NCBI GenBank assembly: GCA_900104855.1
Contig: FNSS01000001.1
Location: 1,364,001 to 1,428,000 of the forward strand
DNA: 64,000 nucleotides
Source of the DNA: Rhizobiales bacterium GAS188
Lineage (GTDB): Bacteria > Pseudomonadota > Alphaproteobacteria > Rhizobiales > Beijerinckiaceae
Direction: 5' to 3'
Made by a program: the position numbers and the translations under genes. The first letter of the stretch is position 1. Every line of letters starts with the position of its first letter. Of this stretch, positions 14,308-60,024 are shown in pieces. Below the pieces are notes generated by a model, which saw only the letters and a program-made list of their open reading frames with translations, searched no databases and was not told the DNA's origin.

Positions 14308-14371
14308 TGAGCGAGCATTGGTCTCAGCGAGCACTGGTCTCAGCGAGCGTTGGCTTCACCGAGCATTGGCT
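14308..14371. repeat. Tandem array, 4 x 16 bp, across the coxM stop codon
   Basis: Plus-strand units are TGAGCGAGCATTGGTC, TCAGCGAGCACTGGTC, TCAGCGAGCGTTGGCT and TCACCGAGCATTGGCT, at 14308, 14324, 14340 and 14356. The last unit holds the coxM stop (TCA at 14356-14358 is TGA on the minus strand). The array fills most of the coxM-coxS spacer, so copy number sets the distance between the two cistrons. Confidence 0.9.
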
Positions 14372-15219
14372 TTGGCGCGCGCCAGTGCCCTGGCGAGCAT
14401 GACGCCGGCCATCTTGGTGCGGTACCTGGCGGGGCCACGCGCATCGGAGGCCGGTGAGGCGATCGCCTCCGCGGCGGCAACCGCCGCCTTGACGGTCGCG
14501 GCATCGAGCGTCGAGCCGATGACGAGCTTCGCTGCCGCCTCGGCGAAGAGCGGCGTCTCGGCCACATTGGTCAGGCCGATGGCGCAGTTCGTGACCTTGC
14601 CGACAGCGAGGCTCAGCACCACGGCGGCGGCGGCGATCGCATAGTCGCCGACCTTGCGCTTCAGCTTCTCATAGGCATGGCCATGGCCTGAAGCCGGCAC
14701 CGGAATGCGGATCGCGGTCACGATCTCGCCGGGCTCGAGCGCCGTGAAATAGGCCCCCTGATAGAAGTCGCGGGCGGCCACCCGCCGCGCACCGCCCTTG
14801 GCGGCGACCTCATACATCGCATCGAGCGCGATCATGACGGCCGGCATGTCGTTGCCGGGATCACCATTCGCGACATTGCCGCCGAGCGTGCCGACATAGC
14901 GGACTTGCGGGTCGGCGATCTGCAGCGAGGTCTCGCGCAGGATGGGGATCTTGGCGCCGAGCAGCTCCGACTGGATCAACTCGTGATGCGTCGCCATGGC
15001 GCCGATGACGATGTCGCCGCCTTCGGCGCGGATGCTGCTGATGTCGGGGATGCCGTGCAGATCGATCAGATGCGCCGGCGAAGCGAGCCGCAGCTTCATC
15101 ATGGGAATGAGGCTGTGCCCCCCGGCGAGGGGGCGCGCATCCTCACCGAGCCGCGCCAGCAAGGCGACGGCATCGGCGACCGAGCTCGGTCGGTGAAAGG
15201 CGAAGGCGCCTGGGATCAC
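14356..15219 (-). CDS. coxM: CO dehydrogenase medium (FAD) subunit
   Basis: 287 residues from the GTG at 15219, giving [20 protein letters not shown], which aligns with the known CoxM start; a GGAGGT ribosome site lies just before it. Longer in-frame starts (to 15381) add non-homologous sequence. FAD-binding signatures are [12 protein letters not shown] and [18 protein letters not shown]. The subunit takes electrons from CoxS and passes them to the quinone pool or respiratory chain. It is the first structural gene of the coxMSLDEF run. A 16-bp repeat array begins at its stop codon. Confidence 0.95.
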
Positions 15220-15591
15220 GGCGGACCTCCCGGTTGCGGCAGAGCAAGCCTTGATCGGAGCAAGGCTGGATCGGAGAAGAAGGCGGCCTGCCCCATCCGC
15301 ATCGACCCGGTCGCAGCGGCGTGCTTGCGCGTGCCTGTTTGTGTTCGCAGACCTGTTGCGGAGCCGAAATAAGCTGCGCATCGCGGTGCAGCAGCAACGG
15401 TCAATTCACGAAAATGGTCGCGATTGCACCGGATGTGCGATCAGCCGCATCAAATGCGGGCCATCTGCACGAATTGCGTCAGAGATACTGACCTGAATCG
15501 TCCGAGACCCGATCTGCGCCGGCTCCTGCGCGGCACCGCAACAAAAGTGTCGCGCTCGCCTATCGCAGCGCAACTAGGATTTTCAGCGGCA
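15220..15591. promoter_or_regulatory. coxC-coxM intergenic region with a small palindrome
   Basis: 372 bp without a gene between the coxC-like stop and coxM start, long enough for a separate cox promoter. It holds a perfect dyad CCGCAT-CAA-ATGCGG at 15445-15459. I see no clear sigma70 hexamers and no obvious LytTR direct repeat, so the promoter position is unassigned. Confidence 0.4.
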
Positions 15592-16848
15592 TCACGCCCG
15601 AAGGGCGAGAGTCGCCTCACGATTGATCAAGCCGAGGCGCGATTTCAACCTGCCGAAGCGGCTGCGGCTGACGGGGACGGTCTGGTGCTCGGCGCCTGAG
15701 AGCTCGACGAGCCCGTTATCCCCGACCCGCTTGAGCCCGACGACGCAATCGAGATTGACGATATGGCTGCGATGCACCCGCACGAAATGCTCGGCATCGA
15801 GGCGCTGCTCGATCTCGCCGATCGAGAGCGGGCAGAACAGCGTTGCGGCCCCATCGGAAATGAAAGTGTAATGCGCATTGGCATGAATGGCGACGATCGT
15901 GTCGATCGGCACGAAATAGGTCGCGCCGTCGCGCTCGACCGGGAGCTGCCTTGCAAGGCGCCGCGGCGGATTTCCAGCGCCTCCGAGCGGCCCGAAGGTT
16001 CCCCGGCCGAATTCGGGGCCGGCCTCATCGCTCCTATTGCCCGGTACGGCTGCCACGACGGCCACGGGTGCCGCAGGCGGCTCCGCGGGCTGCGCCGGGA
16101 CCGTCACGAGCTGTGCGGCTGGGACGTCCAGGCGCGCCGGGGCCGCTGCTCGATCGGGGACCAGCGCCAGGAGGAAGATCGCCGATCCCAGGAAGGCGAC
16201 GATGGCGACCACGATCGCCAGAAGGTCGGTCGAGAGGGCCGGCGCACCGGAAGTCGGCTGGCCGAACGGATAGATGGTGAGCCCCGCCATCGCGGTGTAA
16301 TGCATCCCGGCGATCGCCAATCCGAGCGCCGTCGCCGAGAGCAGGAGTGGCGGACGGCCGCCTCGATCGCTCGCCAGCCAGAGCGCCAGGCCCGATGCGG
16401 CGATGCCGACGAGGACGCTCGCCACCACGAAAGGCGCCTCGTGCACCATATGGGCGCTCGCATGCAGGGCGCTCATGCCGATATAATGCATGGTGGCGAT
16501 GCCGCCCCCCATGACGCAGGCTGAGGCGGCGAGACGGATCATCGTCAGCGGCCCGGCGCTCGCCGCGAACACCGCCGTCCCGACCACGATCACGCAGACC
16601 AGAAAGGACAACAGCGTCGGAAAGACGAGGTAATCGACCGTGAAGGGCAGCCTCGCGGCGAGCATGCCGACGAAATGCATGGCCCAGATGGCGACTGCGA
16701 GCGAAATCGCGGCTCCAGCCAGAAGCAGCCGCCGCCTGAGGCCTTCGGCCTGCCGGACTTGCACGGCGAGGTTCAGCCCGACATAGGCCCCCTGGATCGC
16801 GACGACGAGCGAGAGAATGACGAGCCAAGGCTCATGCGTCACACGCAT
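15592..16848 (-). CDS. coxC: CoxC/CoxH-like membrane regulator: MHYT sensor with LytTR DNA-binding domain
   Basis: 418 residues from ATG 16848 (MRVTHEPW), with GGAG 6-7 bp upstream; an ATG at 16866 is possible. The N-terminal half has about seven membrane helices and three MHYT-type motifs, WAMHFVGM, TMHYIGMS and GMHYTAM, proposed to bind copper and sense a small gas. A Pro/Ala-rich linker leads to a C-terminal LytTR domain (about residues 310-410) with FVPIDTIVAIHANAHYTF and HFVRVHRSHIVNLD. This architecture is that of CoxC and CoxH in CO-oxidising bacteria. Its place directly upstream of coxM on the same strand suggests it controls cox transcription from the membrane. Whether it is CoxC or CoxH is by position only. 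Confidence 0.88.
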   Translation of the reverse strand: MRVTHEPWLVILSLVVAIQGAYVGLNLAVQVRQAEGLRRRLLLAGAAISLAVAIWAMHFVGMLAARLPFTVDYLVFPTLLSFLVCVIVVGTAVFAASAGPLTMIRLAASACVMGGGIATMHYIGMSALHASAHMVHEAPFVVASVLVGIAASGLALWLASDRGGRPPLLLSATALGLAIAGMHYTAMAGLTIYPFGQPTSGAPALSTDLLAIVVAIVAFLGSAIFLLALVPDRAAAPARLDVPAAQLVTVPAQPAEPPAAPVAVVAAVPGNRSDEAGPEFGRGTFGPLGGAGNPPRRLARQLPVERDGATYFVPIDTIVAIHANAHYTFISDGAATLFCPLSIGEIEQRLDAEHFVRVHRSHIVNLDCVVGLKRVGDNGLVELSGAEHQTVPVSRSRFGRLKSRLGLINREATLALRA

Positions 16849-16984
16849 CGGCGCTCCGCCTCCCATCGGAGTTCGGATAAATTCAAGCTCCCATCGGAGC
16901 TCGGCTCAGCTTAGGCCAAATCGCGCCTCGCAACCAAATGACGAAGTGCGGCGCATCCTCGATGTGCGGTCCGATCTTCCCCGG

Positions 16985-17473
16985 TCAAGCGCGCGGGCAG
17001 TATTCCGGCTTGACGTCGATCAGCGGAGTGCCGTCGACGCAGTCGAGGCCGCGCACCAGCAAGGTCGCCCCCTCGACCCGCTCCAGGGCGACGATCGAGG
17101 ATGCGATCGGATTGGGCCGCACGGGCGAGCGCAGCGCGAAGGTGCCCTGCGTCAGCCCCTCGCCCCGCGGATTCTGCAGCACGAGGTCGCGGCGCGCCAG
17201 ATGCATCCAGTAGAGAAGCTGAAGGCGCTCATGGCGCTCGATGCCGGTCAGCGCCCGCAGCCAGGGCTCGTCGATCTCGACACGGCAGAGCGGCCCCGCG
17301 AGATCGCCGCGGCGCGGACAATCCCGACGCGTCGCAAAGGGCGTCCGGATGCGCCCGATGAAATAGAGCTGCGCCTGCGGTGCTTCCGGGAGGCCGACCG
17401 CCTCCTCGTTCGGGCGCAAGCCTTCGGTAACCCGAGTGCCCGATCGTTGCGCATCTATGAGAGCTGGCGGCAT
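16985..17473 (-). CDS. TrmO/TsaA-like tRNA methyltransferase
   Basis: 162 residues. Family marks: YFIGRIRTPF (start of the beta-barrel), LQLLYWMHLARRDLVLQNPR, then GTFALRSPVRPNPIASSIV and LLVRGLDCVDGTPLIDVKPE. TrmO (YaeB) uses AdoMet to methylate N6 of t6A37 in tRNA-Thr. Members outside gammaproteobacteria are shorter and some may act on other substrates. The gene starts 5 bp after the stop of the DUF1185-like gene, so it is probably its co-transcribed partner. Function is by family only. Confidence 0.85.
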   Translation of the reverse strand: MPPALIDAQRSGTRVTEGLRPNEEAVGLPEAPQAQLYFIGRIRTPFATRRDCPRRGDLAGPLCRVEIDEPWLRALTGIERHERLQLLYWMHLARRDLVLQNPRGEGLTQGTFALRSPVRPNPIASSIVALERVEGATLLVRGLDCVDGTPLIDVKPEYCPRA

Positions 17474-17478
17474 TGGCG

Positions 17479-18063
17479 CTACCTCAACCCGTCTTCGCCT
17501 TTGATCTCATGCTTGGCGAGGCCGCCGATGCGCGCCAGCGGCCGCCCGGAATCGGTGATCGCGATCGCCACCACGATCTCGTCCGCGCGCGGCGCATCCT
17601 GCACCCGTGCCTCGATCGCATCGAAATGCGAGCGCACGAAGGCCGCGTCCTTATGGCCGAGCGGCACGTCGATCGCGGTGCCCGGTCCGCCCCTCTTCTT
17701 GGCCGAGGGGATCAAGGCCGGGCCTTTGCCGAGCGCTGCCCGCACCGGCGCACCCATCTTGGGGTGCAGCAAGGCTGCGGCGTGTTCGAGCTCGCCATTC
17801 TCGCCGACGATCGCCGCCTTGCCGAAGCTCTCGGCCTTGGCCCCCTCGATGCCGAGCGCCGCAAGGCAGTGGCGGGTCAGCAAGTCGCCGAGCTCGGCGC
17901 CGATCTCGATGAGCGGCCCGAGATCTTGAACATGGCGTCCCGCGAAGGGATTGGCGATGACGGCGCAAGCGACGGCCCGCCGCGTCGGCGGCGAGATCTG
18001 CTGGCCGGCCTCGAGATGGGTCTCGTCGAGCATGACGAGGATTTTCCGGATCGCAGTCGCCAT
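17479..18063 (-). CDS. Amino-acid-synthesis family protein (DUF1185-like)
   Basis: 194 residues. The sequence IRKILVMLDETHLEAGQQIS, VACAVIANPFAGRHVQDLGP and LIEIGAELGDLLTRHCLAAL fits the DUF1185 / amino-acid synthesis family, which has no firm biochemical role. Later segments include GAPVRAALGKGPALIPSAKK and VVAIAITDSGRPLARIGGL. It is soluble and cytoplasmic. It lies 57 bp after the SDR stop and 5 bp before the TrmO-like gene, all on the minus strand, forming a likely three-gene operon. Family members often occur in catabolic operons with dehydrogenases. Confidence 0.8.
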   Translation of the reverse strand: MATAIRKILVMLDETHLEAGQQISPPTRRAVACAVIANPFAGRHVQDLGPLIEIGAELGDLLTRHCLAALGIEGAKAESFGKAAIVGENGELEHAAALLHPKMGAPVRAALGKGPALIPSAKKRGGPGTAIDVPLGHKDAAFVRSHFDAIEARVQDAPRADEIVVAIAITDSGRPLARIGGLAKHEIKGEDGLR

Positions 18064-18120
18064 GTCGTCCTCAGGTTTGCCTGTTCTCGTTCGATCACGG
18101 GCCGTGATCCACCTTGCGGC

Positions 18121-18894
18121 TTACACCCAGCCGCCATCCACGACGTAATGCTGGTTGGTGCAGGCGCTCGCCTCCTCGGATGCGAGGAACAGGACGACCT
18201 TGGCCATCTCGGGCGGATAGAGTTTGCGCTTCAGGCATTGGCGCTGCATCAATTCCTTCTCGGCCTCGGGCGTGAGCCACAGGTCGATCTGGCGCTGCGT
18301 CATGATCCAGCCGGGCGCGATGGCGTTGACGCGGATATTGAACGGGCCGAAATCGCGCGCCAGCGACCGCGTCAGCCCCAGGACCGCTGATTTCGCCGCC
18401 GTATAGGCCGCCATGCCGCCTTGGCCGATCATCCATGAGGTCGAGCCGAAATTGACGATCGATCCGCCGCCATTGGCCTTCATGTCCGGCAGCACGGCCT
18501 GGGCTGCGAAGAATTGATGCTTGAGATTGACCGCGATCCGGCCGTCCCAATATTCCGGCGTCACGTCCTCGGTCTTGTGACGCTCGTCATGGGCCGCATT
18601 GTTGACCAGCACGGCGACCGGACCATGCGCCTCCTTGATGCGCGAGATGCTGGCGCGCAAGGCCGCGATATCGGTCAGATCGCAATGCTCGAAATGCACG
18701 GTCGCGCCGGCCGCGCCGAGCTCGCCCGCGAGCTTGTGCGAGGCCTCGGCGTTGATGTCGATGAAGCCGATCTTCGACTTCTGCCGGGCGAAGGCGCGCA
18801 CCACGGCCTCGCCGATGCCGCTGCCGCCGCCAGTGACGAGAACCGAGCGATTCTCGAGATCGGGATAGATCGCGCCTGTCGTCGTTGTGGACAT
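18121..18894 (-). CDS. SDR-family oxidoreductase
   Basis: 257 residues. The cofactor site is VLVTGGGSGIGEAVVRAF, with Asp in FIDINAE favouring NAD(H). The catalytic residues are Ser in VNFGSTSW and the YTAAKSA Tyr-Lys pair. The C-terminus ends YVVDGGWV, the usual SDR ending. Close sequence types include gluconate/3-ketoacyl and sugar-acid dehydrogenases, so the substrate is not assigned. First gene of the probable SDR-DUF1185-TrmO-like operon. Confidence 0.92.
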   Translation of the reverse strand: MSTTTTGAIYPDLENRSVLVTGGGSGIGEAVVRAFARQKSKIGFIDINAEASHKLAGELGAAGATVHFEHCDLTDIAALRASISRIKEAHGPVAVLVNNAAHDERHKTEDVTPEYWDGRIAVNLKHQFFAAQAVLPDMKANGGGSIVNFGSTSWMIGQGGMAAYTAAKSAVLGLTRSLARDFGPFNIRVNAIAPGWIMTQRQIDLWLTPEAEKELMQRQCLKRKLYPPEMAKVVLFLASEEASACTNQHYVVDGGWV

Positions 18895-18965
18895 ATGTGC
18901 CTCTGATCGCGCCGCCGCGAAGAAGAAGCGCGAGGCCGGGCCGCCCTGTCAAGCGCGCCGGCGCT

Positions 18966-18999
18966 TCACCTCTCCCGGCAAAGTGGCGGGGAGAGGGAG
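18966..18999. repeat. Intergenic hairpin of the CCTCTCCC/GGGAGAGG type
   Basis: An imperfect inverted repeat (CCTCTCCC, loop GGCAAAGTGGC, then GGGAGAGG) in the divergent gap between the SDR and the DMT transporter. The same stem sequence recurs at 22081, 39569 and 54425, so it belongs to a dispersed REP-like family. Confidence 0.6.
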
Positions 19000-19096
19000 C
19001 CGCGTCCGGCAAGGCAGACATGCGTCCCACGCCTTGCGCTCGCGCCAAGGACAAGTCCTTTGGCTGGCCGCTCGACCCGAATAGGACGCAGAAGCC

Positions 19097-19972
19097 ATGG
19101 CCGGGCTCTCCGCCGAACGCCTCATCCCGCCTGCCTTCGTCTTCCTGTGGTCGACGGGCTTCGTGACGGCGCGGCTGGTCGCCGGCCATACGGAGCCTTT
19201 CACCTTCCTGATCTGGCGCTTTGCCATAGCGGGCCTTGTGCTCGCTGCGGTGTCAGGCCTTGCCAAGGTCAGCTGGCCGCGCGGCCCGCTCGCCTTCGCA
19301 ACTCCGATGTTCGCCGGCGTGTTGATCCATGGAGCCTATCTCGGAGGCGTGTTCTGGTCGGTCGAGCATGGCTTGCCGGCCGGCGTCTCGGCCTTGATCG
19401 CCAGCCTGCAGCCGATCCTCACGGCGGCGCTGGCACGACCGCTGCTCGGCGAGACGGTCAGTTTGCGGCGCTGGTGCGGCATCGCTGCCGCTTCGGTCGG
19501 CGCGCTTCTCGTCATCTCGCCCAAGCTCGGCCTCGTCGGCGAGGGCGCGATCCCGGTCGCGCCGGCCGCCATCTGCTTCCTCGGCATGGTGGCCCTGACG
19601 CTCGGCACCTTCTTCCAGAAGCGCTTCGGCGGCGCGCTCGACATGCGTGCCGGAATCGCGCTGCAATATGCGGGCGCCTGCGTCCTCCTCCTGCCATTCG
19701 CGCTCGTTTTCGAGCAAGGCCGCATCGAGCCGATCCCGCAGGTCATGTTCGGCCTCGCCTGGTCGATCTTCGGCATGTCGATCGTCGCGATCTTGATGCT
19801 GCTCCACATGATCCGCAAAGGCGCGGTGGCGGCCGTCTCCTCGCTCTTCTTCCTGGTGCCGGCGCTGTCGTCGCTGATGGCCTTCCTGATGTTCGGCGAG
19901 CGGCTCACCCTCGTGCAGATCCTCGGCCTCGCTCTCGCCGTGATCGGCGTCTGCGTGGCGAGCCGCGGATAG
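19097..19972 (+). CDS. EamA/DMT-family transporter
   Basis: 291 residues with about ten hydrophobic membrane helices in two EamA repeats. Typical pieces are FVFLWSTGFVTARLVAGHTE at the N-terminus, GLPAGVSALIASLQPILTAA and the matching SSLFFLVPALSSLMAFLMFG in the second repeat. The protein is an inner-membrane exporter of metabolites or amino acids; the substrate cannot be read from sequence. It has its own position opposite the SDR operon. Confidence 0.92.
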   Translation: MAGLSAERLIPPAFVFLWSTGFVTARLVAGHTEPFTFLIWRFAIAGLVLAAVSGLAKVSWPRGPLAFATPMFAGVLIHGAYLGGVFWSVEHGLPAGVSALIASLQPILTAALARPLLGETVSLRRWCGIAAASVGALLVISPKLGLVGEGAIPVAPAAICFLGMVALTLGTFFQKRFGGALDMRAGIALQYAGACVLLLPFALVFEQGRIEPIPQVMFGLAWSIFGMSIVAILMLLHMIRKGAVAAVSSLFFLVPALSSLMAFLMFGERLTLVQILGLALAVIGVCVASRG

Positions 19973-20075
19973 GCAGATGCGGGTCGCCCTGGCTACGCCT
20001 TCCGTGTCATATGCCTGCGCCGACACTGGCGCTATGATGGCGCTTCGACCCGTTAGTTTGCCCGCGAAAGTCGAG

Positions 20076-20639: not shown

Positions 20640-20680
20640 GCGAGCGCAGCGCCTCTTCCGGTCCCGCGCGGGAAGACGAG

Positions 20681-21397: not shown

Positions 21398-21440
21398 GGT
21401 AAAGCTTTGCGGCGCGATGTCGTCGCTGGCCGCCCGAGGC

Positions 21441-22790: not shown

Positions 22791-22807
22791 CTCAAGCGTC
22801 CTCCTGC

Positions 22808-23779: not shown

Positions 23780-23793
23780 CGGTGGCCTCCTTA

Positions 23794-24933: not shown

Positions 24934-24944
24934 GATTGGAGCGC

Positions 24945-27452: not shown

Positions 27453-27482
27453 TCGTCGACCTCGGCTATGGTGATGCCGCTT

Positions 27483-27527
27483 CGATCCCAGAGGACTGGA
27501 ACCAAGAGGACTCGATCCAAACGGATT
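27483..27527. repeat. Tandem repeat, 3 x 15 bp, in the decarboxylase/homospermidine synthase promoter region
   Basis: Units CGATCCCAGAGGACT, GGAACCAAGAGGACT and CGATCCAAACGGATT at 27483, 27498 and 27513. They lie 31 bp upstream of the decarboxylase ATG, where a promoter or 5' leader is expected. Confidence 0.8.
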
Positions 27528-34737: not shown

Positions 34738-35147
34738 GCCTTAAACGCTCTCTGACCGGGGGCGAGGACACCTATCGGGGTCCTGATATGACGGATTACC
34801 TCTTCGGCGAGATCCGGGCCGCCCCGAGAGCAGAGCAGGGCTTGCACAGCGTGGCTTGCACAGCGTGCCTTGCGCCGGAAACCACAGCTTCGCTGCCGCA
34901 TGCCAAGCGGCAGCTGTCGCGTGGCTTGGGCTCCACGGCATTGGGGCCCGTCGCAAGCGTACCGGTTTCTTCTGTCGTACCCCCTCTGAAGACCAGCAGA
35001 GGTGCGCGACAATTCGTCGTTTTGCCGCCTATCGACGATCTTGTTTTGTTCCCTTGTGTATAAACGCAGCATTCATATGATGATAACATAATGACAATGT
35101 TTCGATTCTGCTGGTCACGCCCATGGCGTGGAATGGGGCTACTGCCG
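34738..35147. other. Intergenic region with a perfect 14-bp tandem duplication
   Basis: About 400 bp between the methyltransferase and the desaturase. It contains two adjacent perfect copies of GCTTGCACAGCGTG (34840-34867). An A/T-rich section at about 35040-35095 (TTGTTTTG, then ATATGATGATAACATAATG) is a plausible promoter zone for the desaturase. No supported gene. Confidence 0.5.
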
Positions 35148-40032: not shown

Positions 40033-40593
40033 TCAGCTCTCCTCCTCGCCTGAAGGCGCGGCGGCGACCGGATCGTCGCCGTCGAGCAGAGCCTTTTCCA
40101 GCTCGTCGAGCTCGGCCTGCAGCCTTGCCAGACGTTCGGGCCCGAAGCGACGGGCGATCTCCGCATAGCCGGCCTCGGAGGCCGGAGCATGGGCCGCGAT
40201 CAGCTCATATCCGGCGGCCGAGATACCGATGACGCTGCGGCGCAGATCGGATTGATCGGCGCGCCTTTCGATCAGCTTTCGCTCGCCGAGATCGCGCAGG
40301 ATGCGCGACAGGCTGGGCGGCAGCAGGAAGGTCGCGCGCGCCAGCGCCATGGCCTCGATCGGTCCGCGCGCCGCCAAGGCCCGCAACACGCGCCATTGCT
40401 GCTCGCTCAGGCCGTGGGCCCGCAGTGATGGGCGGAAATACCGCATCGTCGCCTCGCGCGCCCGCATGAGCGCCATCGGCAAGGAGCGCGAGAAGTCGCG
40501 CAGCGCGATCTGCGGCGGCTTGGGATCAGTGACTTTGGGGTCAGTCACTTTGGGATCGGTCACTTTGCGATCAGTCACTTTGGGGGCAGTCAC
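40033..40593 (-). CDS. hpaR: HpaR, MarR-family regulator of homoprotocatechuate degradation
   Basis: 186 residues if started at the GTG at 40593; the start is uncertain because a 5 x 15-bp repeat encodes the N-terminal VTDPK-type tail. The MarR body begins IALRDFSRSLPMALMRAREA and has the winged helix LSEQQWRVLRALAARGPIEA, with LLPPSLSRILRDLGERKLIE and RRADQSDLRRSVIGISAAG. HpaR represses the hpa genes until an aromatic acid binds. It follows hpaG by 7 bp. Family HpaR proteins are about 140-150 residues, so the repeat tail is extra. Confidence 0.9.
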   Translation of the reverse strand: MTAPKVTDRKVTDPKVTDPKVTDPKPPQIALRDFSRSLPMALMRAREATMRYFRPSLRAHGLSEQQWRVLRALAARGPIEAMALARATFLLPPSLSRILRDLGERKLIERRADQSDLRRSVIGISAAGYELIAAHAPASEAGYAEIARRFGPERLARLQAELDELEKALLDGDDPVAAAPSGEEES

Positions 40594-43100: not shown

Positions 43101-44483
43101 ATGCGCGTGGATCGAACGTTGGGCAGGCTGACCAGGAGTGTCGCGCTCTTCGCGAGGGCATCTTTGGCGACTGCGTTCTTGACGAGTGCATCCCTCGGAA
43201 GCCCCGCCGGGGCTGCACAGGACGCCACAAACGCCCTGGCGGCCGCCTTCAACGGCTTCGGCCAGGACGTGTTCGCGGTGCTCGAGCGCAAGCCGGGCAA
43301 TCTCGTCTTCTCGCCCTATTCGGTCGGCGTGGCGATGGCGATGACCATGTCGGGCGCAGGAGGCGATACGCAAAGCGAGATGCTGAAGGCCATGCGCTTC
43401 ACCCAGACGCCCTCCGCCATCGAGGCCACGAATGGCGAGCTGGCGGCCCTTCTCAAGAGCTATGGCAGGGCGCCGCCGGCAGAGGCGAGCCCCGAGGAAC
43501 AATGCCGCAAGATCAACATGCCGGCCGCCGATTGCGTCAAGAGACTGCGCGCCGCCTTGAAGCCGCCGGCCGCTCCGACCGAGCTCGAGATCGCCAACGC
43601 CTTGATGATCACGCCGAAAGGCGACGACGCCAAGATCGTGTCGCCGCAATATGCATCGCTCCTCCAGAAGGCATATGCCGCCGCGATCTTCCAGGAGGCG
43701 AGCCTGCAGAGCGTCAATCAGTGGGCCGCCGGCGCCACCAGGGACAAGATCGACCCGTTTCTGCGGCGCATCGATCCGGACGCCATCGCTGTCATCCTCG
43801 ACGCCGTCTATTTCAAGGGAACTTGGGAAACGCCATTCGATGCGGTGCGCACCAAGGACGGCGCTTTCACGCTGGCATCCGGGGAGGTCATCCAAATTCC
43901 GACGATGTCGATCACGAAGCCCTTTGCCCTCCTGGCGGGCGCGGGCTTCAAGGCGGTGCGGCTCCCCTATCAGACGCCGGATCTCGGCATGATCATCGTC
44001 CTTCCGGATGACGCGAAAAGGCTCGACGCCGTCAGCGCCAAGCTCGATGCGGCCGGGCTCGCCAAGCTCGTGCCCGAGGTCGAGGCTGCGACGTCCGCCT
44101 TGCTCGAGCTGAAGCTTCCCCGTTTCAAGGCGGAGTTCGGCGCCAACCTCAAAGAGCCGATGCAATTGGCGGGGCTGAAGCTCGCCTTCGACCCCCAAAA
44201 TGCGAATTTCGACGGGATTGCCGGCCGTCCCCTTGGGCCTGGGACAATCTATGTCAGCAGCGTCATCCACAAGGCGACGATCGAGGTGACCGAGGAAGGC
44301 ACGGTGGCGGCCGCCGTCACGGCCGTCACCATCACGCTCAAGGCGGCGCCGATGCAACCTCCGCTGTTCGCCGTCGACCGCCCCTTCCTGTTCTACATCA
44401 CCGATAGGAAATCGGGCGCGATCCTGTTCCAGGGGCGGATCGAGGATCCGCGCCAGAGGGTGAACGACTCCATCAACGACTGA
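43101..44483 (+). CDS. Exported serpin (serine protease inhibitor family)
   Basis: 460 residues from ATG 43101, giving a signal peptide (MRVDRTLGRLTRSVALFARA, cleavage near AGAAQ). The serpin fold shows NLVFSPYSVGVAMAMTMSGA, DAVYFKGTWETPFDAVRTKD and VIHKATIEVTEEGTVAAAVT (hinge, Gly400 onward). Counting from the hinge Gly as P15 places Lys414 at P1, so a trypsin-like target is predicted. The hinge Ala run is consistent with an inhibitory serpin that can insert its loop. An insert with two Cys (QCRKIN...DCVKRL) after residue 130 is unusual. Serpins are sporadic in Alphaproteobacteria. It ends in a 16-bp repeat array. Confidence 0.93.
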   Translation: MRVDRTLGRLTRSVALFARASLATAFLTSASLGSPAGAAQDATNALAAAFNGFGQDVFAVLERKPGNLVFSPYSVGVAMAMTMSGAGGDTQSEMLKAMRFTQTPSAIEATNGELAALLKSYGRAPPAEASPEEQCRKINMPAADCVKRLRAALKPPAAPTELEIANALMITPKGDDAKIVSPQYASLLQKAYAAAIFQEASLQSVNQWAAGATRDKIDPFLRRIDPDAIAVILDAVYFKGTWETPFDAVRTKDGAFTLASGEVIQIPTMSITKPFALLAGAGFKAVRLPYQTPDLGMIIVLPDDAKRLDAVSAKLDAAGLAKLVPEVEAATSALLELKLPRFKAEFGANLKEPMQLAGLKLAFDPQNANFDGIAGRPLGPGTIYVSSVIHKATIEVTEEGTVAAAVTAVTITLKAAPMQPPLFAVDRPFLFYITDRKSGAILFQGRIEDPRQRVNDSIND

Positions 44484-44538
44484 GCCTTCCAACGACTGAG
44501 CCTTCCAACGACTGAGCCTTCCAACGACTGAGCCTTCG
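44475..44538. repeat. Tandem array, 4 x 16 bp, across the serpin stop codon
   Basis: AACGACTGAGCCTTCC begins at 44475, 44491, 44507 and 44523; three copies are identical and the fourth differs only at its last base. The first unit contains the serpin stop TGA (44481-44483). The near-perfect identity suggests recent expansion. Confidence 0.95.
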
Positions 44539-47114: not shown

Positions 47115-47787
47115 TGGGCGTCAGATAGAGGGTGGCCGAGAATTTGGTCAGGTTGCTCGGATCTTCCTGCTCCAGCCCCTTGCGCGTGATCGCCAGGATG
47201 TCATTTCGCAGCTCGATCAATTTGCGGCGGATGCGCGCGATCTCGCGCGGCGTCCCGAGACCCGTGAAATCGAGCCAGAAACCTTCATCCTTGCGCAGAT
47301 CCGCGGGCGCACGCAGGATTCGTTCGCGCGAGACGCTGAGCATCGAGGCCAGGAAATCGGCGACCGCCTTATAGGTGGCCGCTGTGACCGTGCTGCCGTC
47401 GAGGGTTTCCGGGTCCGGCATCAGCCGCTCGAAGCTCAATAGCCTGCCGGCGAGGACGTAATATTTTTGCGTGATGCCCTGCGAATGGTCGAGGCTGTGG
47501 AGCCTGATGAGCTTCGCGCTCTCGAGCACCTTGAGATGATAATGGACCTTGGCGCGCGGCATCTCCAATTGCCGGGCGATCTGTGCCCCGGTCTTGGGTT
47601 TGCCCAGCAGAATCGCGATCCGATAGCGAAGAGGATCGGCGAGCACTTGAAGCTGTTCGATCGTCTCGAGATAATAGTAGTCAGCAGGAGGTTCCGACTG
47701 GGCCGTAGGTGTCTTTGATACCTTGGATGTCTTGGATATCTTGGACGCCTTGGGTGCTCCGGCAGAGCTGCTTCGTCTTGATGTCAT
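47104..47787 (-). CDS. ArsR-like winged-helix regulator, last gene of an oligopeptide ABC operon
   Basis: 227 residues from ATG 47787, which overlaps the stop of the ATPase gene (ATGA). After a Ser/Lys-rich tail built from four 9-bp repeats (ASKISKTSKVSKT), the winged helix is TIEQLQVLADPLRYRIAILL then TGAQIARQLEMPRAKVHYHL. The C-terminal part (about 100-227) is helical and unassigned. Proteins of this HTH_20/ArsR type regulate neighbouring transport or stress genes. Coupling to the ABC operon suggests it controls peptide uptake; inference. Confidence 0.85.
   Translation of the reverse strand: MTSRRSSSAGAPKASKISKTSKVSKTPTAQSEPPADYYYLETIEQLQVLADPLRYRIAILLGKPKTGAQIARQLEMPRAKVHYHLKVLESAKLIRLHSLDHSQGITQKYYVLAGRLLSFERLMPDPETLDGSTVTAATYKAVADFLASMLSVSRERILRAPADLRKDEGFWLDFTGLGTPREIARIRRKLIELRNDILAITRKGLEQEDPSNLTKFSATLYLTPIKP
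47717..47752. repeat. In-frame 4 x 9 bp repeat in the regulator N-terminus
   Basis: GATACCTTG, GATGTCTTG, GATATCTTG and GACGCCTTG at 47717, 47726, 47735 and 47744. On the minus strand they encode a Ser-Lys-x repeat in the disordered tail of the regulator. Confidence 0.8.
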
Positions 47788-49785: not shown

Positions 49786-49786
49786 C

Positions 49787-49822
49787 GTCCAAGCTCCTGC
49801 TTCAGTCCAAGCTCCAGCTTCA
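49787..49822. repeat. 2 x 18 bp duplication holding a stop codon and a ribosome site
   Basis: GTCCAAGCTCCTGCTTCA (49787-49804) and GTCCAAGCTCCAGCTTCA (49805-49822). On the minus strand each unit contains a GGAGCTTGGAC segment; the distal unit ends in the stop TGA (49822-49820) of the beta-lactamase-like gene and the proximal copy supplies AGGAG for the TTG start of the ATPase. Confidence 0.9.
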
Positions 49823-50740: not shown

Positions 50741-50744
50741 CAGA

Positions 50745-52567: not shown

Positions 52568-52623
52568 GGCGTTCCTTCATGCGGCGCCCCTGTCACGAGA
52601 GGCGCTGTGCTGATCGTCGACGC

Positions 52624-54207: not shown

Positions 54208-54648
54208 CTTCACTCTCCCCTGGGACGATCCGCCCGCGGACATCGTCGAAGCGCTGCTGCGTAAAATTCACCTGCCGCGTCAGTTTAATTTGACAGCACG
54301 GCATCATACCGAGCTTCAAGCCCGATGCAAGACGCTTGCCGGGCCGGTGGTGGAACGAACCGAGGGCGGTGCTCGAATGCCCGACGGACCGCCTCGAGCT
54401 TGCGGGGGAAATCGAGCGCCAGCGCCCACCTCTCCCCTTGTGGGAGAGGTCGGAACACGAGCGCAGCGAGGGTTCCGGGTGAGGGGGCAGCGCCGGCTTC
54501 CTCGCCGAGGCCGCTCATCTCGGGGCCGGAATTGGCCGCACCGACGAGGCTTCCGAAGCAGAAGCTGCCCCCTCACCCGATCCTCGCCTGGGGGCTCGGA
54601 TCGACCTCTCCCGCAAGGGGAGAGGTGAGGTCGGCGCTTTTTCTCGGA
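54208..54648. repeat. Intergenic region with an inverted REP pair
   Basis: 441 bp between the two ABC operons. CCTCTCCCCTTGTGGGAGAGG at about 54429 and CCTCTCCCGCAAGGGGAGAG at about 54606 are hairpins whose inner flanks (GGGTGAGGGGGCAGC and CCCCCTCACCCGATC) are inverted copies. It is the same REPIN-like family as at 39406. It may also terminate the upstream operon. Confidence 0.75.
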
Positions 54649-55506
54649 CTATGCTGTCTGCACCTGCTTGGCGTGCTTCGCACCCGGCACCGAGGACAAG
54701 AGCAGCCGCGTATAGTCGTGCCGCGGGTTTGCGAAGATCTCGGCTCGTGATCCGCGCTCGACGACGCGCCCGAGATACATGACGACGACCTCGTCCGAGA
54801 TGGTCTCGACGACCGCGAGATCATGCGAGATGAACACATAGGTCAGGTCCAATCGCGCCTGCAGCTCGGCGAGGAGGCTGAGCACCTGGGCCTGGATGGA
54901 GACGTCGAGCGCGGAGACCGGCTCGTCGAGGATGATGAGCTCGGGCTCGGCCGCCAGTGCCCGGGCGATGCCGATGCGCTGAGCCTGGCCGCCGGAGAAT
55001 TCATGCGGGTAGCGCTCGGTGAATTCGGCGCGCAGGCTGACCAGGCCCATGAGCTCGGCGACACGCTCATTCCTGGCCTTGGCGCCCATGCCATGCAGCG
55101 CCTTCAGGGGAGCCTCGAGAATGGCGCGAACCGTCTTGCGCGGATTGAGCGAGCCGAGCGGGTCCTGAAACACCATCTGCACCTTGCGGTGCAGCGCCTT
55201 GCGGTCCTCGCGCGCCAGCTCCGCCACCGATTGGCCGTCGAGCTCGATGCTGCCGGAAGTGGGCTCGAGCAACCCCACCATCATGCGCGCCATGGTCGAC
55301 TTGCCGCAGCCCGATTCGCCGACGATGCCGAGCGTGCGGCCGCGCCGAACCTCGATCGAAACGCCGTCGACGGCGCGCAATGCCTTCCGGCGCGTGCCGA
55401 ACAGAGCTTTGCCGAACAGTTTTTGGCCGAACAGTTTTTGGCCGAACAGACCCGGTCCACCATATTCGCGCACCACATCGCGCGTCGTGAGCATCATCTC
55501 GCTCAT
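54649..55506 (-). CDS. Oligopeptide ABC transporter ATPase, DppF-type (second operon)
   Basis: 285 residues from ATG 55506 ([19 protein letters not shown]), overlapping the fusion-gene stop (ATGA). Walker A is [19 protein letters not shown], the signature [17 protein letters not shown], Walker [18 protein letters not shown]. Residues about 18-38 are expanded by a 4 x 15-bp repeat (LFGQK copies). The C-terminus stops soon after [20 protein letters not shown] and lacks the usual Cys-rich oligo_HPY tail. It pairs with the fused ATPase domain upstream. Confidence 0.93.
55396..55455. repeat. In-frame tandem repeat, 4 x 15 bp, in the DppF-type ATPase
   Basis: Units GCCGAACAGAGCTTT, GCCGAACAGTTTTTG (twice, identical) and GCCGAACAGACCCGG at 55396, 55411, 55426 and 55441. 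On the minus strand they encode LFGQK-type repeats between the N-terminal strand and the AVDGVSIEV strand of the ATPase. Confidence 0.92.
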
Positions 55507-57449
55507 GCGGGAGCCTCTGCATGGATGCAGCGCACCCAATGGCTGTCGCCGACCGGGGCGATGGCGATCTCGCCTGCGCTGCATCGCGCATCGGCGAGAT
55601 GGCAGCGCGGCGCAAAGGCGCAACCCGGCGGCAAGGCGTTGGTGGGCGGCGGCAGGCCCGGAATGGGATCGATGCGTCGCTCGGAACGTCCGAGCTCCGG
55701 CACGCAGGCGAGCAGGCGCTGCGTATAGGGATGGCGCGGCCCGCGCAGCACCGCGTCGACGGGGCCGCTCTCGACGACGCGCCCGCCATACATGACGTGG
55801 ACCGTGTCGCAGAGCTCGGCGATGACGCCCACATCATGGCTGATGAAGACGAGAGCCGAGCCGCGCTCGCGGCGCAGCTCGTTGAGCAGCTTCAGGATCT
55901 GCGCCTGCGTCGTGACGTCGAGCGCCGTCGTCGGCTCGTCGGCGATGATGAGCTCGGGATCGTTGGCGAGCGCCATGGCGATGCCGATGCGCTGACGCTG
56001 GCCGCCGGAGAGCTCATGGGGGTAGGCATCGGCGCGCCCCGCGGCATCCGGGATGCGCACCGCCTCAAGGAAGGCGATGGCGCGCTCCATCGCCTCGGCG
56101 CGCCCGAGCCCCTGATGCCGCCTGATCGCCTCGGCGATCTGCTCGCCGACCGGCAGGAGCGGGTTGAGCGTCGTCTGCGGGTCCTGGAACACATAGGCGA
56201 TGCGATTGCCGCGGATCGCCTGCAGGCGGCGCAAGGGCGCGCCGGCGAGATCCTCGCCATGATGGAAGATGCCGCCATGCACGATGCGGCCGGGCGGTGT
56301 CGCGACGAGGCCGAGCACCGAGAGCGCCGTCACCGTCTTGCCGGATCCGGATTCGCCCACGAGGCCGACCGCCTGTCCCGGCCGCACCTCGAGGTCGACG
56401 CCCCCGACCGCGCGATAGATCTCGTCGCCGACCAGGAAATGCGTCTCGAGGCCCCGCACCACGAGCGGCAGCTCCGCCGCCGCGGGATCGGTCGAGAGAC
56501 CCTGCATCCGCTCGCCTGCCGGCGCCGCGTCGGTCTTGGCGCGGGCGCGGGCGAGGCCGCCCGATTTCAGCTTCGGATCGAGCACGTCGCGCAAGCCGTC
56601 GCCGACGAGGTTGATGCCGATCGCCAGGAGCAGGATGACGATGCCGGGGATGGTCGCCACATGCGGCGCCACCTGGATGAGGTTGCGCCCGTCGCCGAGC
56701 ATGCCGCCGAGATCGGCCTGCGGCGGCTGGGCGCCGAGCCCGAGGAAGCTCAGCCCCGCCGTCTCGAGGATCATCCAGCCGACCGTGGTCGAGAGCGTGA
56801 TGACGATCACCGGCAGCACGTTGGGGAAGAGCTCGCTCGCGACGATCTCGAGGTCGCTCAATCCCGACAGGCGCGCCGCCGCCATGAAGTCGGCGCGCAC
56901 CACGGTGAGTGTTGCGCCGCGCACCGCGCGTGCGAAAAACGGGATGTTGACGACGATGATGGCCATCATCGCATTGATGAGGCCGGGCCCGAGCGCCGCG
57001 ACGATGGCGAGCGCCAAGAGCAGATAGGGAAAGGCCATGAGCATGTCGATGCCGCGCATCAACAGCATGTCGACAACCTTGCCGTAGAAGGCGGCGAAGA
57101 GCCCGATGGCGGAGCCGATCAGGGCCGCCATGGTCGCCGCCGCGAGGCCTACCGCGAAGCTGACGCGCGTGCCGAAGATGAGGCGCGAGAGAATATCGCG
57201 GCCGACCTGGTCTGTGCCGAGCATATGGCCCGGGCTGAGCGGCGGCAGTAGGCGATGAGCGACATCCGTAATATTGGGATCGGCGAGCGGCAGGATCGGG
57301 GCCGCGAAAGCGATCGCGACGATGACGGCGAGAAGCGCCAGGCCGAAGCTCGCGACCGAGTTCTGCGTCAGGCGCCGCCAGGCGCTCGGGCGCCCGCTCT
57401 TGACGACCCTGACCGGGACGGTCGCGATGCCTTCGGTCGAGACGGTCAT
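55503..57449 (-). CDS. Fused DppC-type permease and DppD-type ATPase
   Basis: 648 residues from ATG 57449 ([20 protein letters not shown]), overlapping the DppB-type stop (ATGA). Residues about 1-300 form a DppC permease ([50 protein letters not shown]). A linker of about 25 residues ([20 protein letters not shown]) leads to a DppD ATPase with Walker [20 protein letters not shown], signature [17 protein letters not shown], Walker [17 protein letters not shown], and a Cys-containing oligo_HPY end. These are normally separate genes; the fusion is in one frame with no stop. Confidence 0.94.
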
Positions 57450-58396
57450 GAGCGACGCATCCGTGGATCGAGGAGGCTTTGCGCGATATCGGTCATGAGG
57501 TTGATGACCACATAGGCCGCCGCGACCACCAACACGCCGCCCTGGACCAGCAGGATGTCGCGGGTCGAGATGGCGCTGACCAGCATGCGCCCGATGCCCG
57601 GCCACTGGAACACGGTCTCGATGTAGACGGCGCCCCCGAGCACGAACCCGGCCTCGAGGCCGATGATGGGGATGACGCTGACGAGCGCGTTGCGGAAGGC
57701 ATGCTTGAAGATGACGCTCGTCTCGCCGAGGCCCTTGGCGCGCGCCGTGCGCACATAGTCCTGGCGCATCACCTCGAGCATGCTGCCGCGCGTCAGGCGC
57801 ACCAGGACGGCGCCGGCGACGGCCGCCAATGCGATCGACGGCAGCACGAGGTGGCGCGCGATATCGACGATGCCGCCGCCGCCGAACATCTCGACCATGC
57901 CGCCGACCGGCAGGACCGAAAACCGCACGGCGAACCAGAAGATCAGGAGGATGCCGAGCCAGAAGGACGGCGTCGAGATGCCGACCAGGACGCCGACAGT
58001 GATGAGCTTGTCCTGCCAGGCATTCTGCTTGATCGCCGCGATGATGCCAAGGAGCAGGCCGACAGCGCTCGAGAGCAGCAGGGCGGCGCCGGCGAGCAGC
58101 AAGGTCGGGAACAGCCGGTCGAGAACTTCGTCGATGACGGGGCGATGCAGGATGTAGGAACGCCCGAAATCGCCATGCAGCAGATTGCCGAGCCAGATGA
58201 CATACTGGACCGGGAGCGGGCGATCGAGGCCGAGATCGTGATTGACCTTGGCGACATTTTCAGGCGTCGCGAAAGTCCCGAGGATCGCCTTGGCGGGATC
58301 GCCCGGGATCAAGGAGATCACCAGGAAAACGATGACGGTGACGCCGAACAGCACCGGCACCATGAGCAGTATTCGACGCAGGATGTAAGAGTGCAA
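57446..58396 (-). CDS. Oligopeptide ABC transporter permease, DppB-type (second operon)
   Basis: 316 residues with six membrane helices. Starts MHSYILRRILLMVPVLFGVT, with HGDFGRSYILHRPVIDEVLD. The EAA loop region is RTARAKGLGETSVIFKHAFR, with VYIETVFQWPGIGRMLVSAI. Stop overlaps the fused gene start. Gap of 29 bp from the binding-protein gene. Confidence 0.96.
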   Translation of the reverse strand: MHSYILRRILLMVPVLFGVTVIVFLVISLIPGDPAKAILGTFATPENVAKVNHDLGLDRPLPVQYVIWLGNLLHGDFGRSYILHRPVIDEVLDRLFPTLLLAGAALLLSSAVGLLLGIIAAIKQNAWQDKLITVGVLVGISTPSFWLGILLIFWFAVRFSVLPVGGMVEMFGGGGIVDIARHLVLPSIALAAVAGAVLVRLTRGSMLEVMRQDYVRTARAKGLGETSVIFKHAFRNALVSVIPIIGLEAGFVLGGAVYIETVFQWPGIGRMLVSAISTRDILLVQGGVLVVAAAYVVINLMTDIAQSLLDPRMRRS

Positions 58397-58425
58397 GGGA
58401 ACCTCGGCGCCCGAGCTCTATCTGC

Positions 58426-60024
58426 CTATTCCTTGTAGACCTTCCAGAAGCGTGTCGTGAAGGAGGGGTGCGGCTCGAAACCCTTCACCGACGCCGACGA
58501 CACGGCATTTTGCTTCCAATTGGCGATGAACACCCAAGGGGCGTCATCGGCGACGATCTCCTGCAGCTGCTTGTAGATCGCGGCCCGCTTGGCGGGATCG
58601 GATTCGGTGCGCCCGGCGTCGATCAACTCGTCGACCTTCGGGTTCGAGTAGCGGCCGGAATTGACCGCGCCGCCGGTGCGCAGCGCCAACGCCGGATGCA
58701 TGTCGGGATCCTGCGTCATGAATGACAATTCGGCGATCTGCGCCTTGCCCTCCATGCCGGGGATGAGCTTGCCGAGAAAGGTGTTCCACTCATAGGTCTC
58801 GATCTTCGGCCTGATGCCCACGGCCTGAAGATCGGCCTGGATCGCGGTCCCCATCAGGATCGGCGAGAGCATGCCCGAACCGCTCTCGGTGACGTAGAAG
58901 GTGACGTCGACGCCATTCGGGTAGCCGGCCTCGGCGAGCAGCGCCTTGGCCTTCGCCGGATCATAGGGATAGGGCTTCAGATCATTGTCATGCGCCCAGG
59001 TGAAGGCGGACGGAGTTGGTCCAGCGGCGACCGTGGCGGTGCCCTTCAGGATCTGGTTGACCATGGCCTCCTTGTTGATCGCGTAATTCGCGGCTTGGCG
59101 AACGCGCTTGTCGTCGAAGGGTTTCTCCTTGGTGTTGAGCAGCAAATACCACAGATGCGGGCCTGCCTGCTCGTAATAGGTGAATTTCGCGGTGTCCTTG
59201 AAGCTCGCGACATTGTCGGGTGGCACCTCGATGGTGATGTCCGTGCCGCCCGACAGCATTTCGCTGACGCGCGCATTCTCATCGATGATCGGGCGGAAGA
59301 CGAGGCCTTCGAGCTTCGGCGCTCCGCCCCAATACTCCTTATTGGCCTCGAGCACGAAACGCTGGCTGCTCTCCCAGAGCTTGAACTTGAAGGGTCCGGT
59401 GCCGCCTCCATGACGGCTGAACTCCTTGCCGTATTGCTTGACCGCGGCCGGCGAGATGCCGACCAGCCCGCCGACGGCTGAGCCCATCATGGTCAGCATC
59501 GGTGCGTAGGGGGCGCTCAGATGGATCGAGACCGTCATCGGATCGACGACCTCGGTGCTTTGAATCGGCCCGAGCAGGAAGACGAAAGGAAAGGGCCCGG
59601 TGTTGTAATAGGGGTGGGTCTTGTCGGTGATGCGGTCGAGGTTGAACTTCACCGCTTCGGCATTGAAGGGCGTCCCGTCATGGAATTTCACGCCCTCGCG
59701 CAGCTTGAACGTATAGGTCTTGCCGTCCGGGCTCATCGTCCATGAGGTGGCAAGGCCAGGCTCGAGCTCGAGGCTGCCATCCTTGTAGTGGAGCAGGCCC
59801 TCGTACATGTTCGCCAGGATGCGGAAATCGCTGATGGTCACCGATTGCGCCGGATCGAGCGTCTGCAGCTCCGCCACATGCCCGATGACGAGGACGTTCT
59901 TGGGCGTCTGCGCCTGCGCGCCGCTGCCGAGCGCGCCGACCGCCAAGATGCCGACCGAAGCGAGGCTGAGCGCCAGGGAAGCGTAGAATCCGGCAGCGTA
60001 GAATCCGGCCAGTAATTTGCGCAT
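58426..60024 (-). CDS. Oligopeptide-type ABC substrate-binding protein (second operon)
   Basis: 532 residues. Signal peptide with a duplicated AGFYA pentapeptide (2 x 15 bp at 59981-60010) before LALSLASVGILAVGALGSGA and a site near AQAQ. The mature part follows SBP family 5: VLVIGHVAELQTLDPAQSVT, NMYEGLLHYKDGSLELEPGL, then ATSWTMSPDGKTYTFKLREG. It binds the transported peptide-like ligand in the periplasm. It lies 30 bp after the amidase gene. Confidence 0.95.
   Translation of the reverse strand: MRKLLAGFYAAGFYASLALSLASVGILAVGALGSGAQAQTPKNVLVIGHVAELQTLDPAQSVTISDFRILANMYEGLLHYKDGSLELEPGLATSWTMSPDGKTYTFKLREGVKFHDGTPFNAEAVKFNLDRITDKTHPYYNTGPFPFVFLLGPIQSTEVVDPMTVSIHLSAPYAPMLTMMGSAVGGLVGISPAAVKQYGKEFSRHGGGTGPFKFKLWESSQRFVLEANKEYWGGAPKLEGLVFRPIIDENARVSEMLSGGTDITIEVPPDNVASFKDTAKFTYYEQAGPHLWYLLLNTKEKPFDDKRVRQAANYAINKEAMVNQILKGTATVAAGPTPSAFTWAHDNDLKPYPYDPAKAKALLAEAGYPNGVDVTFYVTESGSGMLSPILMGTAIQADLQAVGIRPKIETYEWNTFLGKLIPGMEGKAQIAELSFMTQDPDMHPALALRTGGAVNSGRYSNPKVDELIDAGRTESDPAKRAAIYKQLQEIVADDAPWVFIANWKQNAVSSASVKGFEPHPSFTTRFWKVYKE
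59981..60010. repeat. 2 x 15 bp duplication in a signal peptide
   Basis: GCGTAGAATCCGGCA (59981-59995) and GCGTAGAATCCGGCC (59996-60010), differing only at the last base. The duplication adds five residues to the hydrophobic start of the binding protein. Confidence 0.9.

What the first reader, a model, noticed from the sequence alone, without database searches (positions are those of the whole stretch)
14308..60010. Recurrent short tandem duplications at gene ends and starts
At least nine arrays of unrelated units occur in about 46 kb: 16 bp x4 (14308), 15 x3 (27483), 14 x2 (34840), 15 x5 (40523), 16 x4 (44475), 9 x4 (47717), 18 x2 (49787), 15 x4 (55396) and 15 x2 (59981), plus an imperfect one at 14264. 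Most units are 14-18 bp, although the sequences differ, and nearly all sit within 100 bp of a gene boundary. Three straddle stop codons. A unit length that repeats without a shared sequence points to a mechanism (slippage or end-joining duplication with a fixed offset) rather than a mobile element. Seen directly; the mechanism is inference.
Basis: partly seen in the sequence, partly recalled or inferred. Interest (0 to 1): 0.72.

Follow-up and report, generated by a model that had tools for sequence, protein, structure and literature searches.

The report
Lineage-specific 15-base tandem duplications
This alphaproteobacterial genome is dotted with short head-to-tail duplications whose units are mostly 14-18 bases long and quite often start or end at the letters CAAG, which points to a DNA nicking or repair process whose traces are much rarer in the related genera examined.

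Summary
TRF finds all nine arrays. In 1.664 Mb sampled from the 9.09 Mb genome, a fixed-threshold detector finds 122 arrays with 14-18 bp units; codon-order shuffles give 1.5 and synonymous shuffles 14.0. Outside genes, 58 of 73 non-heptad arrays have 13-20 bp units: 24 per 100 kb non-coding, against 12 in three congeners (small sample), 0.7 in four other genera of the family and 3.2 in an alphaproteobacterial panel; E. coli K-12 has none in 250 kb. In genes, 53 of 56 units are 15 or 18 bp, keeping the frame.

"Without a shared sequence" is wrong. Units are enriched for CCAAG, also in DNA fetched afterwards, and 27 of 136 arrays have an edge at CAAG; simulated duplications average 4.0 and longer-unit arrays of the same genome give 3 of 112. 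13 of 25 clean duplications have no junction homology.

Inferred: nick at CAAG, displacement of about 15 nt, rejoining without homology, survival where tolerated. The enzyme is unknown. Archaeal Borg repeats are the nearest published analogue I found.

The parts
14306..14369 (.). 16 bp x4 array covering the TGA stop (14356-14358, minus strand) of a CoxM-like gene, upstream of a [2Fe-2S] subunit gene
   Evidence: TRF; sequence; Pfam; gene calls
27482..27520 (.). 15 bp x2.6 imperfect array between genes, 49 bp from the nearest gene boundary; contains CCAAG
34839..34873 (.). 14 bp x2.5 array between genes, 119 bp from the nearest gene boundary
40520..40593 (-). 15 bp x4.9 array in frame at the N-terminus of a MarR-family gene (repeat VTDPK)
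44474..44537 (.). 16 bp x4 perfect array; the stop codon of a serpin gene (44481-44483, plus strand) is in the first copy
47710..47753 (.). 9/18 bp imperfect array holding CTTGG in several copies, between two called genes or in an N-terminal extension of an HTH regulator (the start is uncertain)
49787..49822 (.). 18 bp x2 array over the stop of a Beta-lactamase2-family gene (49820-49822, minus strand); its right edge directly follows CAAG on the minus strand. The only one of the nine window arrays in the edge set with a CAAG edge
55396..55450 (-). 15 bp x3.7 array in frame near the N-terminus of an ABC transporter ATPase (LFGQK repeats); absent from syntenic contig L176
59980..60009 (-). 15 bp x2 perfect array in frame near the start (signal-peptide-like stretch) of a solute-binding protein (AGFYA repeats); absent from L176 and L177
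39952..39986 (.).
8551..8578 (-).

Best explanation
Shown: this genome holds very many short tandem duplications with units of 13-20 bp (mostly 14-18). About half of the clean ones have no homology at the junction, and in about a fifth of all of them one edge lies at the word CAAG. Shown by comparison: the class is much rarer in the four other genera of the family sampled and in a wider alphaproteobacterial panel; a small sample of congeners resembles the own genome. Inferred: the duplications arise by a mutational process that starts at a nick in or beside CAAG on one strand; a polymerase displaces about 14-18 nt; the displaced flap is rejoined to the newly made strand, which copies the unit once. 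Because the word often stays inside the unit the event can recur and build 3-8 copies. Selection then removes events that break genes, which leaves arrays between genes, over stop codons, and in frame (15 or 18 bp) within genes. The nicking enzyme is not identified.
For: Unit-length peak at one fixed threshold; at a lower threshold on 864 kb still almost nothing at 10, 11 and 13 bp. Excess over two kinds of shuffle. Lineage contrast outside genes: own 58 arrays in 240 kb, congeners 5 in 40 kb, four other genera 1 in 140 kb, panel 5 in 156 kb (tests). CCAAG enrichment found on one set (strict recount 14 of 60 against 2.1) and seen again in DNA fetched afterwards (9 of 46 against 1.8). Among 2876 word-by-offset tests the four best are CAAG at 0, CCAA at -5, CCAA at -1 and CAAG at -4, i.e. 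edges at C|CAAG and CCAAG|. CAAG edge in 27 of 136 arrays of 13-20 bp against mean 4.0 and maximum 12 in 300 simulations, and 3 of 112, 0 of 18 and 0 of 19 in the other array classes of the same genome. No junction homology in 13 of 25 clean duplications.
Against: 109 of 136 arrays have no CAAG edge, and only 1 of 9 window arrays has one. CAAG is also raised inside units, so part of the edge signal reflects unit content. The edge offsets were first read on the pooled set. Congeners show a CAAG edge in 1 of 8 arrays only, and own and congener densities do not differ (P = 0.20). Ku and LigD, if needed, are also in G012, which has no peak. The 5'-3' exonuclease domain of Pol I, which should remove flaps, is present and uninterrupted. 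No strain comparison was possible, so no event was seen to happen. Some in-gene arrays may be ordinary protein repeats: the synonymous shuffle gives 14.0.
Confidence: 0.4

Rival explanations
1. Staggered double break: two nicks on opposite strands 14-18 bp apart, overhangs filled in and the ends joined by Ku and LigD, giving a tandem copy. It shares the lineage-specific process of the best explanation and differs in the step.
For: Ku and LigD are present in the own genome, close together (C1:6.18 Mb), and in three congeners. Homology-free junctions fit. In mammalian cells paired nicks give tandem duplications by end joining (PMC8355091, passages read). Edges at C|CAAG and CCAAG| are 4 bp apart, as a 4-nt stagger would give.
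Against: No array has CAAG at both edges (0 of 136), though about 1.3 would be expected if edges were independent, so this says little. Ku and LigD are also in G012 without the peak.
Confidence: 0.2
2. Ordinary replication slippage, as in all bacteria, whose products persist here because this lineage deletes them slowly; the unit length reflects the size of a polymerase-bound loop and CAAG is a pause site.
For: The few arrays of the wider panel also sit mostly at 14-16 bp (15 arrays of 14-18 bp units in 1.59 Mb), so a weak form may be general. Many arrays are imperfect, hence old. The genome is large (9.09 Mb against 4.7-4.9 Mb in congeners), though assembly quality differs.
Against: Slippage is expected to use homology at the ends, and 13 of 25 clean duplications have none. 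Arrays of 21-60 bp units in the same genome do not show the CAAG edge (3 of 112), and their lengths are not enriched outside genes. Two secondary contigs have 1 array where 7.3 were expected, which could equally reflect recent arrival.
Confidence: 0.2
3. Selected elements: the arrays are kept because they act as protein-binding sites, transcript ends or flexible protein segments.
For: Position near gene boundaries (68% within 100 bp against 27%) and a recurring core word.
Against: Units share only a short core; both in-gene and non-genic arrays carry it. Units show no extra hairpin potential. The two arrays comparable with relatives are absent there, in segments that do not align well. Density along C1 is close to Poisson.
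Confidence: 0.1
4. Footprints of a mobile element that makes 14-18 bp target-site duplications and then leaves.
For: Such an element would give homology-free duplications of near-fixed length at a weak target word.
Against: None of the array junctions printed shows a remnant between copies, and arrays of 3-8 copies would need repeated visits. I did not search systematically for filled sites. Only one reverse transcriptase gene is in the genome, on C2.
Confidence: 0.05

Closest known systems
Tandem repeats of archaeal Borg elements (PMC9879509; passages, section 9 and part 1 of section 21 read)
   Same: Units differ from place to place and arise independently; formation is specific to certain genomes and rare in others; units inside genes keep the frame and give amino-acid repeats; some arrays start in gene ends; the authors suggest that a short composition feature may localise the machinery.
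   Different: Borg repeats are on archaeal extrachromosomal elements, are perfect, have A-rich units and partial repeats at the flanks. Here the host is a bacterial chromosome, copies are often imperfect, unit length is narrowly peaked and the edge word is CAAG.
Paired-nick tandem duplications in mammalian cells (PMC8355091; passages read)
   Same: Short tandem duplications without repeats or homology, explained by nicked or broken DNA, fill-in and end joining.
   Different: Eukaryotic factors (CST, Pol alpha-primase, Ku), experimentally made nicks, overhangs of 43-50 nt; here nothing but the sequence footprint is known.
Bacterial satellites and VNTRs (PMC6749651; passages read)
   Same: Short tandem arrays; in bacteria unit lengths that are multiples of three predominate, as in genes here. 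Burkholderia satellites of 12, 14 and 16 nt are described there.
   Different: The Burkholderia ones derive from 6-8 nt units and form sequence families; here heptad arrays were set aside, units form no family, and a length peak with an edge word remains.
Heptamer direct repeats such as TAACTGA in Beggiatoaceae and cyanobacteria (PMC4679880; passages read)
   Same: Short direct repeats in intergenic regions near start codons; this genome also has heptad arrays of its own (17).
   Different: One fixed 7-bp word there; the arrays of this finding have 13-20 bp units of different sequence, and heptad arrays show no CAAG edge (0 of 19).

Membership tests
Borg-type tandem repeats | Units different at each place, in-gene units divisible by three, formation restricted to certain genomes | tested here: met
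   53 of 56 in-gene arrays of 14-18 bp have 15 or 18 bp units; lineage contrast; no dispersed family found by word counts
Borg-type tandem repeats | Perfect copies on an archaeal extrachromosomal element with A-rich units | tested here: not met
   Bacterial chromosome; many imperfect copies; A content of units as such was not tabulated
Replication-slippage VNTR | Homology between unit ends before duplication | tested here: inconclusive
   13 of 25 clean duplications have none, 12 have 2-13 bases, some of them part of a third copy; two of the 25 are copies of one sequence
Replication-slippage VNTR | Copy number varies between strains | not testable with these tools
   One genome per species is held
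Ku/LigD end-joining duplications | Ku and LigD present | tested here: met
   Own genome and three congeners; but also in G012, which has no peak
Ku/LigD end-joining duplications | Duplications disappear without Ku or LigD | not testable with these tools
   Needs mutants
Vsr short-patch repair accidents at CTWGG | Vsr nickase present, and both CTTGG and CTAGG affected | tested here: not met
   No Vsr in the own genome or three congeners; CCTAG in 1 of 136 arrays against 0.3 expected
Dispersed mobile repeat (MITE or REP type) | Copies share a sequence over their length | tested here: not met
   Units share only a short core; CCAAG outside arrays is at observed/expected 0.98; no excess stem potential
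Heptamer direct repeats | Unit of 7 bp | tested here: not met
   Heptad-like arrays were recognised and removed

The most novel reading that the evidence does not exclude
A bacterial genus carries an active, sequence-directed duplication machinery: an enzyme nicks at CAAG and a repair step copies about 15 nt in place, again and again, so that new 5- and 6-residue protein repeats and new spacers appear throughout the chromosome at a rate far above that of related genera.
Probability: 0.3. Interest if true: 0.85.

Novelty: new variant of a known kind. Interest (0 to 1): 0.62.

Why it matters
How short tandem duplications start without homology is not settled, least of all in bacteria (my judgement; the searches named in Tried and rejected listed no bacterial case). 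A lineage with roughly 7 to 30 times the non-genic density of the comparison sets, a narrow unit length and an edge word offers a natural system in which the starting lesion could be found. It would also show a route by which a genome gains in-frame 5- and 6-residue repeats.

Tried and rejected
Chance: rejected by two kinds of shuffle. Coding periodicity: explains 15 and 18 bp in genes, not the non-genic peak. One dispersed repeat family: not found. Hairpins in units: same as background. Inverted pairing of CAAG and CTTG near one unit: 9 arrays against 1.0 expected; left unexplained. Transcription strand: in-gene arrays carry CCAAG on the sense strand 24 to 4, but the coding background is already 2205 to 1063 (P = 0.04), and non-genic arrays lean the other way, 9 to 16; not pursued. 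Replication strand: GC skew too weak to place the origin. Loss of the Pol I 5'-3' exonuclease domain: domain present without a stop in a 1024-aa frame; catalytic residues not checked. Vsr: absent from own genome and three congeners. Reverse transcriptase: one, on C2. Ku and LigD alone do not predict the peak.

Literature: searches returned no paper. Searches returned lists (some capped); by titles and abstract starts none describes this pattern in a bacterium. Only the four papers named under Closest known systems were opened, and only in part. The library holds open-licence papers only, so absence there is weak.

Limits: 18% of the genome was sampled (1.664 of 9.09 Mb). The gene caller is my own script, without a benchmark. 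The 73-locus panel (L183-L255) is centred on one transporter gene, so it is not a random sample. Congeners: 222 kb, partly from short contigs. With threshold 13 a two-copy unit under 13 bp cannot be seen; threshold 11 on the first 864 kb still shows 10:0, 11:0, 12:7, 13:1 against 14:14, 15:41. P values for words are Poisson and uncorrected.
Full report
What was checked. The window is C1:1364001-1428000 of a 9.09 Mb, three-contig genome. The closest records to one of its proteins (532 aa) are MAG contigs of unnamed Hyphomicrobiales (91% identity), then other MAG contigs, Methylocapsa (74%) and Lichenibacterium (72%) (records very near the window may be left out there). By my gene calls, 8 of 9 are centred within 100 bp of a gene boundary. 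Three cover stop codons: of a CoxM-like gene, a serpin and a Beta-lactamase2-family gene. Three are inside genes and in frame.

Is it more than chance? I took 80 further stretches of 20 kb, which makes 1.664 Mb with the window, and scored matches at every lag with one threshold. This treats unit lengths of 13 bp and more alike. The spectrum is sharply peaked: 14:26, 15:54, 16:5, 17:9, 18:28, against 12:5, 13:3, 19:5, 20:1, 21:8. Codon-order shuffles give 1.5 arrays of 14-18 bp and synonymous shuffles 14.0 (two replicates each), against 122. Seventeen heptad-like arrays (TAGTGAA and CTCACTA types) are a separate class and are left out of the counts called non-heptad.

Where. In genes, 53 of 56 arrays of 14-18 bp have 15 or 18 bp units; translations show 5- and 6-residue repeats. 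45% of these 56 lie within 100 bp of a gene end against 21% of random in-gene positions. Outside genes, non-heptad arrays number 58 with 13-20 bp units, 4 with 8-12 and 11 with 21-60. Of 66 arrays of 14-18 bp not inside genes, 40 are nearer a 3' end. I read this as tolerance, not targeting. Density along C1 is close to Poisson (mean 1.40, variance 1.54 per 20 kb), and five stretches of the two small contigs have 1 array in 100 kb where 7.3 were expected.

Is it special to this lineage? Non-genic non-heptad arrays of 13-20 bp, per 100 kb of non-coding DNA: own 24.1 (58 in 240 kb); three congeners together 12.2 (5 in 40 kb); four other genera of the family (G012, G016, G018, G023) 1 in 140 kb; a 73-locus alphaproteobacterial panel 3.2 (5 in 156 kb). 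Own against the four genera P = 8e-11, against the panel 3e-8; congeners against the four genera 0.003, against the panel 0.04; own against congeners 0.20. E. coli K-12: one array in 250 kb, with a 54 bp unit. Two syntenic contigs, L176 and L177 (24 kb together), hold no array of 8-40 bp units (at the own genome's rate only about two would be expected). The window's array at 55396 is absent from L176 and that at 59980 from L176 and L177, in segments that have otherwise diverged.

A hidden shared word. On the first 60 non-heptad arrays the strongest 5-mer was CCAAG/CTTGG (14 of 60 units against 2.1 by the strict count). On 46 arrays in DNA fetched afterwards it was enriched again (9 against 1.8, P = 9e-5). 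With class-matched and local backgrounds the total is 23 of 106 against 4.2 and 4.1; in-gene (11 of 56 against 1.8) and non-genic arrays (12 of 50 against 1.9) show it separately. In genes, 12 of 24 sense CCAAG lie in the reading frame that gives a CAA codon, a frame that holds 343 of 2205 in the gene background, so it is not a codon effect. Outside arrays the word is not over-represented (observed/expected 0.98). One array of G018 and two of a congener also contain it.

The edge. All 4-mers at offsets -12 to +7 around 272 edges of 136 arrays (13-20 bp units, threshold 12) make 2876 tests. The four best are CAAG at 0 (12 against 1.28), CCAA at -5 (9 against 0.81), CCAA at -1 (9 against 0.81) and CAAG at -4 (9 against 1.28) (instances). 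The edge thus lies at C|CAAG or at CCAAG|, 4 bp apart. Both halves of the data show it: 6 and 6 at offset 0, 5 and 4 at -4, each against 0.64. Thirteen low-score non-genic arrays outside that set have 4 of 26 edges at 0, -3 or -4, against about 0.4 by the rates. Counting these three offsets, 27 of 136 arrays have a CAAG edge (in-gene 10 of 69, non-genic 17 of 67); 300 simulations of duplications in the same DNA give a mean of 4.0 and a maximum of 12. Congeners show 1 of 8, the four genera 0 of 15 and the panel 0 of 24. In the same genome the other classes do not show it: 3 of 112 (21-60 bp), 0 of 18 (8-12 bp), 0 of 19 (heptad). Against: CAAG is also raised inside units, 109 of 136 arrays have no such edge, and in the window only the array at 49787 does (1 of 9).

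How it may work. Of 25 clean duplications, 13 have no extra matching base at the junction and 12 have 2-13, some of which belong to a third copy; two of the 25 are copies of one sequence. Together with a narrow unit length and a word at one edge, this fits a nick at CAAG, displacement of about 15 nt and rejoining of the flap (my choice), or two staggered nicks filled in and joined by Ku and LigD. Ku and LigD are present in the own genome and three congeners, but also in G012, which has no peak. The 5'-3' exonuclease domain of Pol I is present, Vsr is absent, and one reverse transcriptase lies on C2. The enzyme is open. That no array has both edges marked says little, since about 1.3 would be expected. 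No gain of a copy was observed: one genome per species is held, so strains could not be compared.

Known comparators. Borg tandem repeats (PMC9879509; passages, section 9 and part 1 of section 21) are the closest in kind: independent, specific to certain genomes, frame-keeping in genes, perhaps seeded by a composition feature. They differ in host, perfection, unit composition and seed. Paired-nick duplications in mammalian cells (PMC8355091, passages) are the closest in mechanism. Bacterial satellites (PMC6749651, passages) and heptamer repeats (PMC4679880, passages) differ in unit length and in forming sequence families or one word. I therefore call this a new variant of a known kind.

Noticed in passing
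L040:12459-12576, L143:12088-12157, L136:13765-13842; also L230: Heptad arrays (TAGTGAA, CTCACTA types) in or beside intergenic regions of this genome; a similar heptad array occurs in a Chelativorans contig (L230), so they are more widespread than the 13-20 bp class.
   Followed up: partly
G000:C3:96204, G000:C1:2281531, G000:C1:4443219: Three DnaA-domain hits of nearly equal strength in open frames of 560-594 aa in one genome, one of them on a small contig.
   Followed up: no
G000 as a whole: The genome is 9.09 Mb while three congeners are listed at 4.7-4.9 Mb; those are draft assemblies.
   Followed up: no
L050, L051, L150, L151, L171: The two small contigs carry 1 array in 100 kb where 7.3 were expected from C1.
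   Followed up: partly
window 43164-44483: A serpin-family gene (Pfam PF00079, 1.9e-83) in an alphaproteobacterium.
   Followed up: no
intergenic DNA of the own-genome sample: The 8-mers GCGGGAGA (174), CCTCTCCC (151) and CCTTCTCC (126) top the intergenic word count, which suggests a dispersed intergenic repeat family.
   Followed up: no
G001:C39, G002:C123, G010:C355: A second, stand-alone 5'-3' exonuclease-domain protein of about 300 aa in two congeners and G010, not found in G000.
   Followed up: no
own-genome arrays: CAAG and CTTG occur together near one unit in 9 arrays against 1.0 expected, without a general excess of stems.
   Followed up: no
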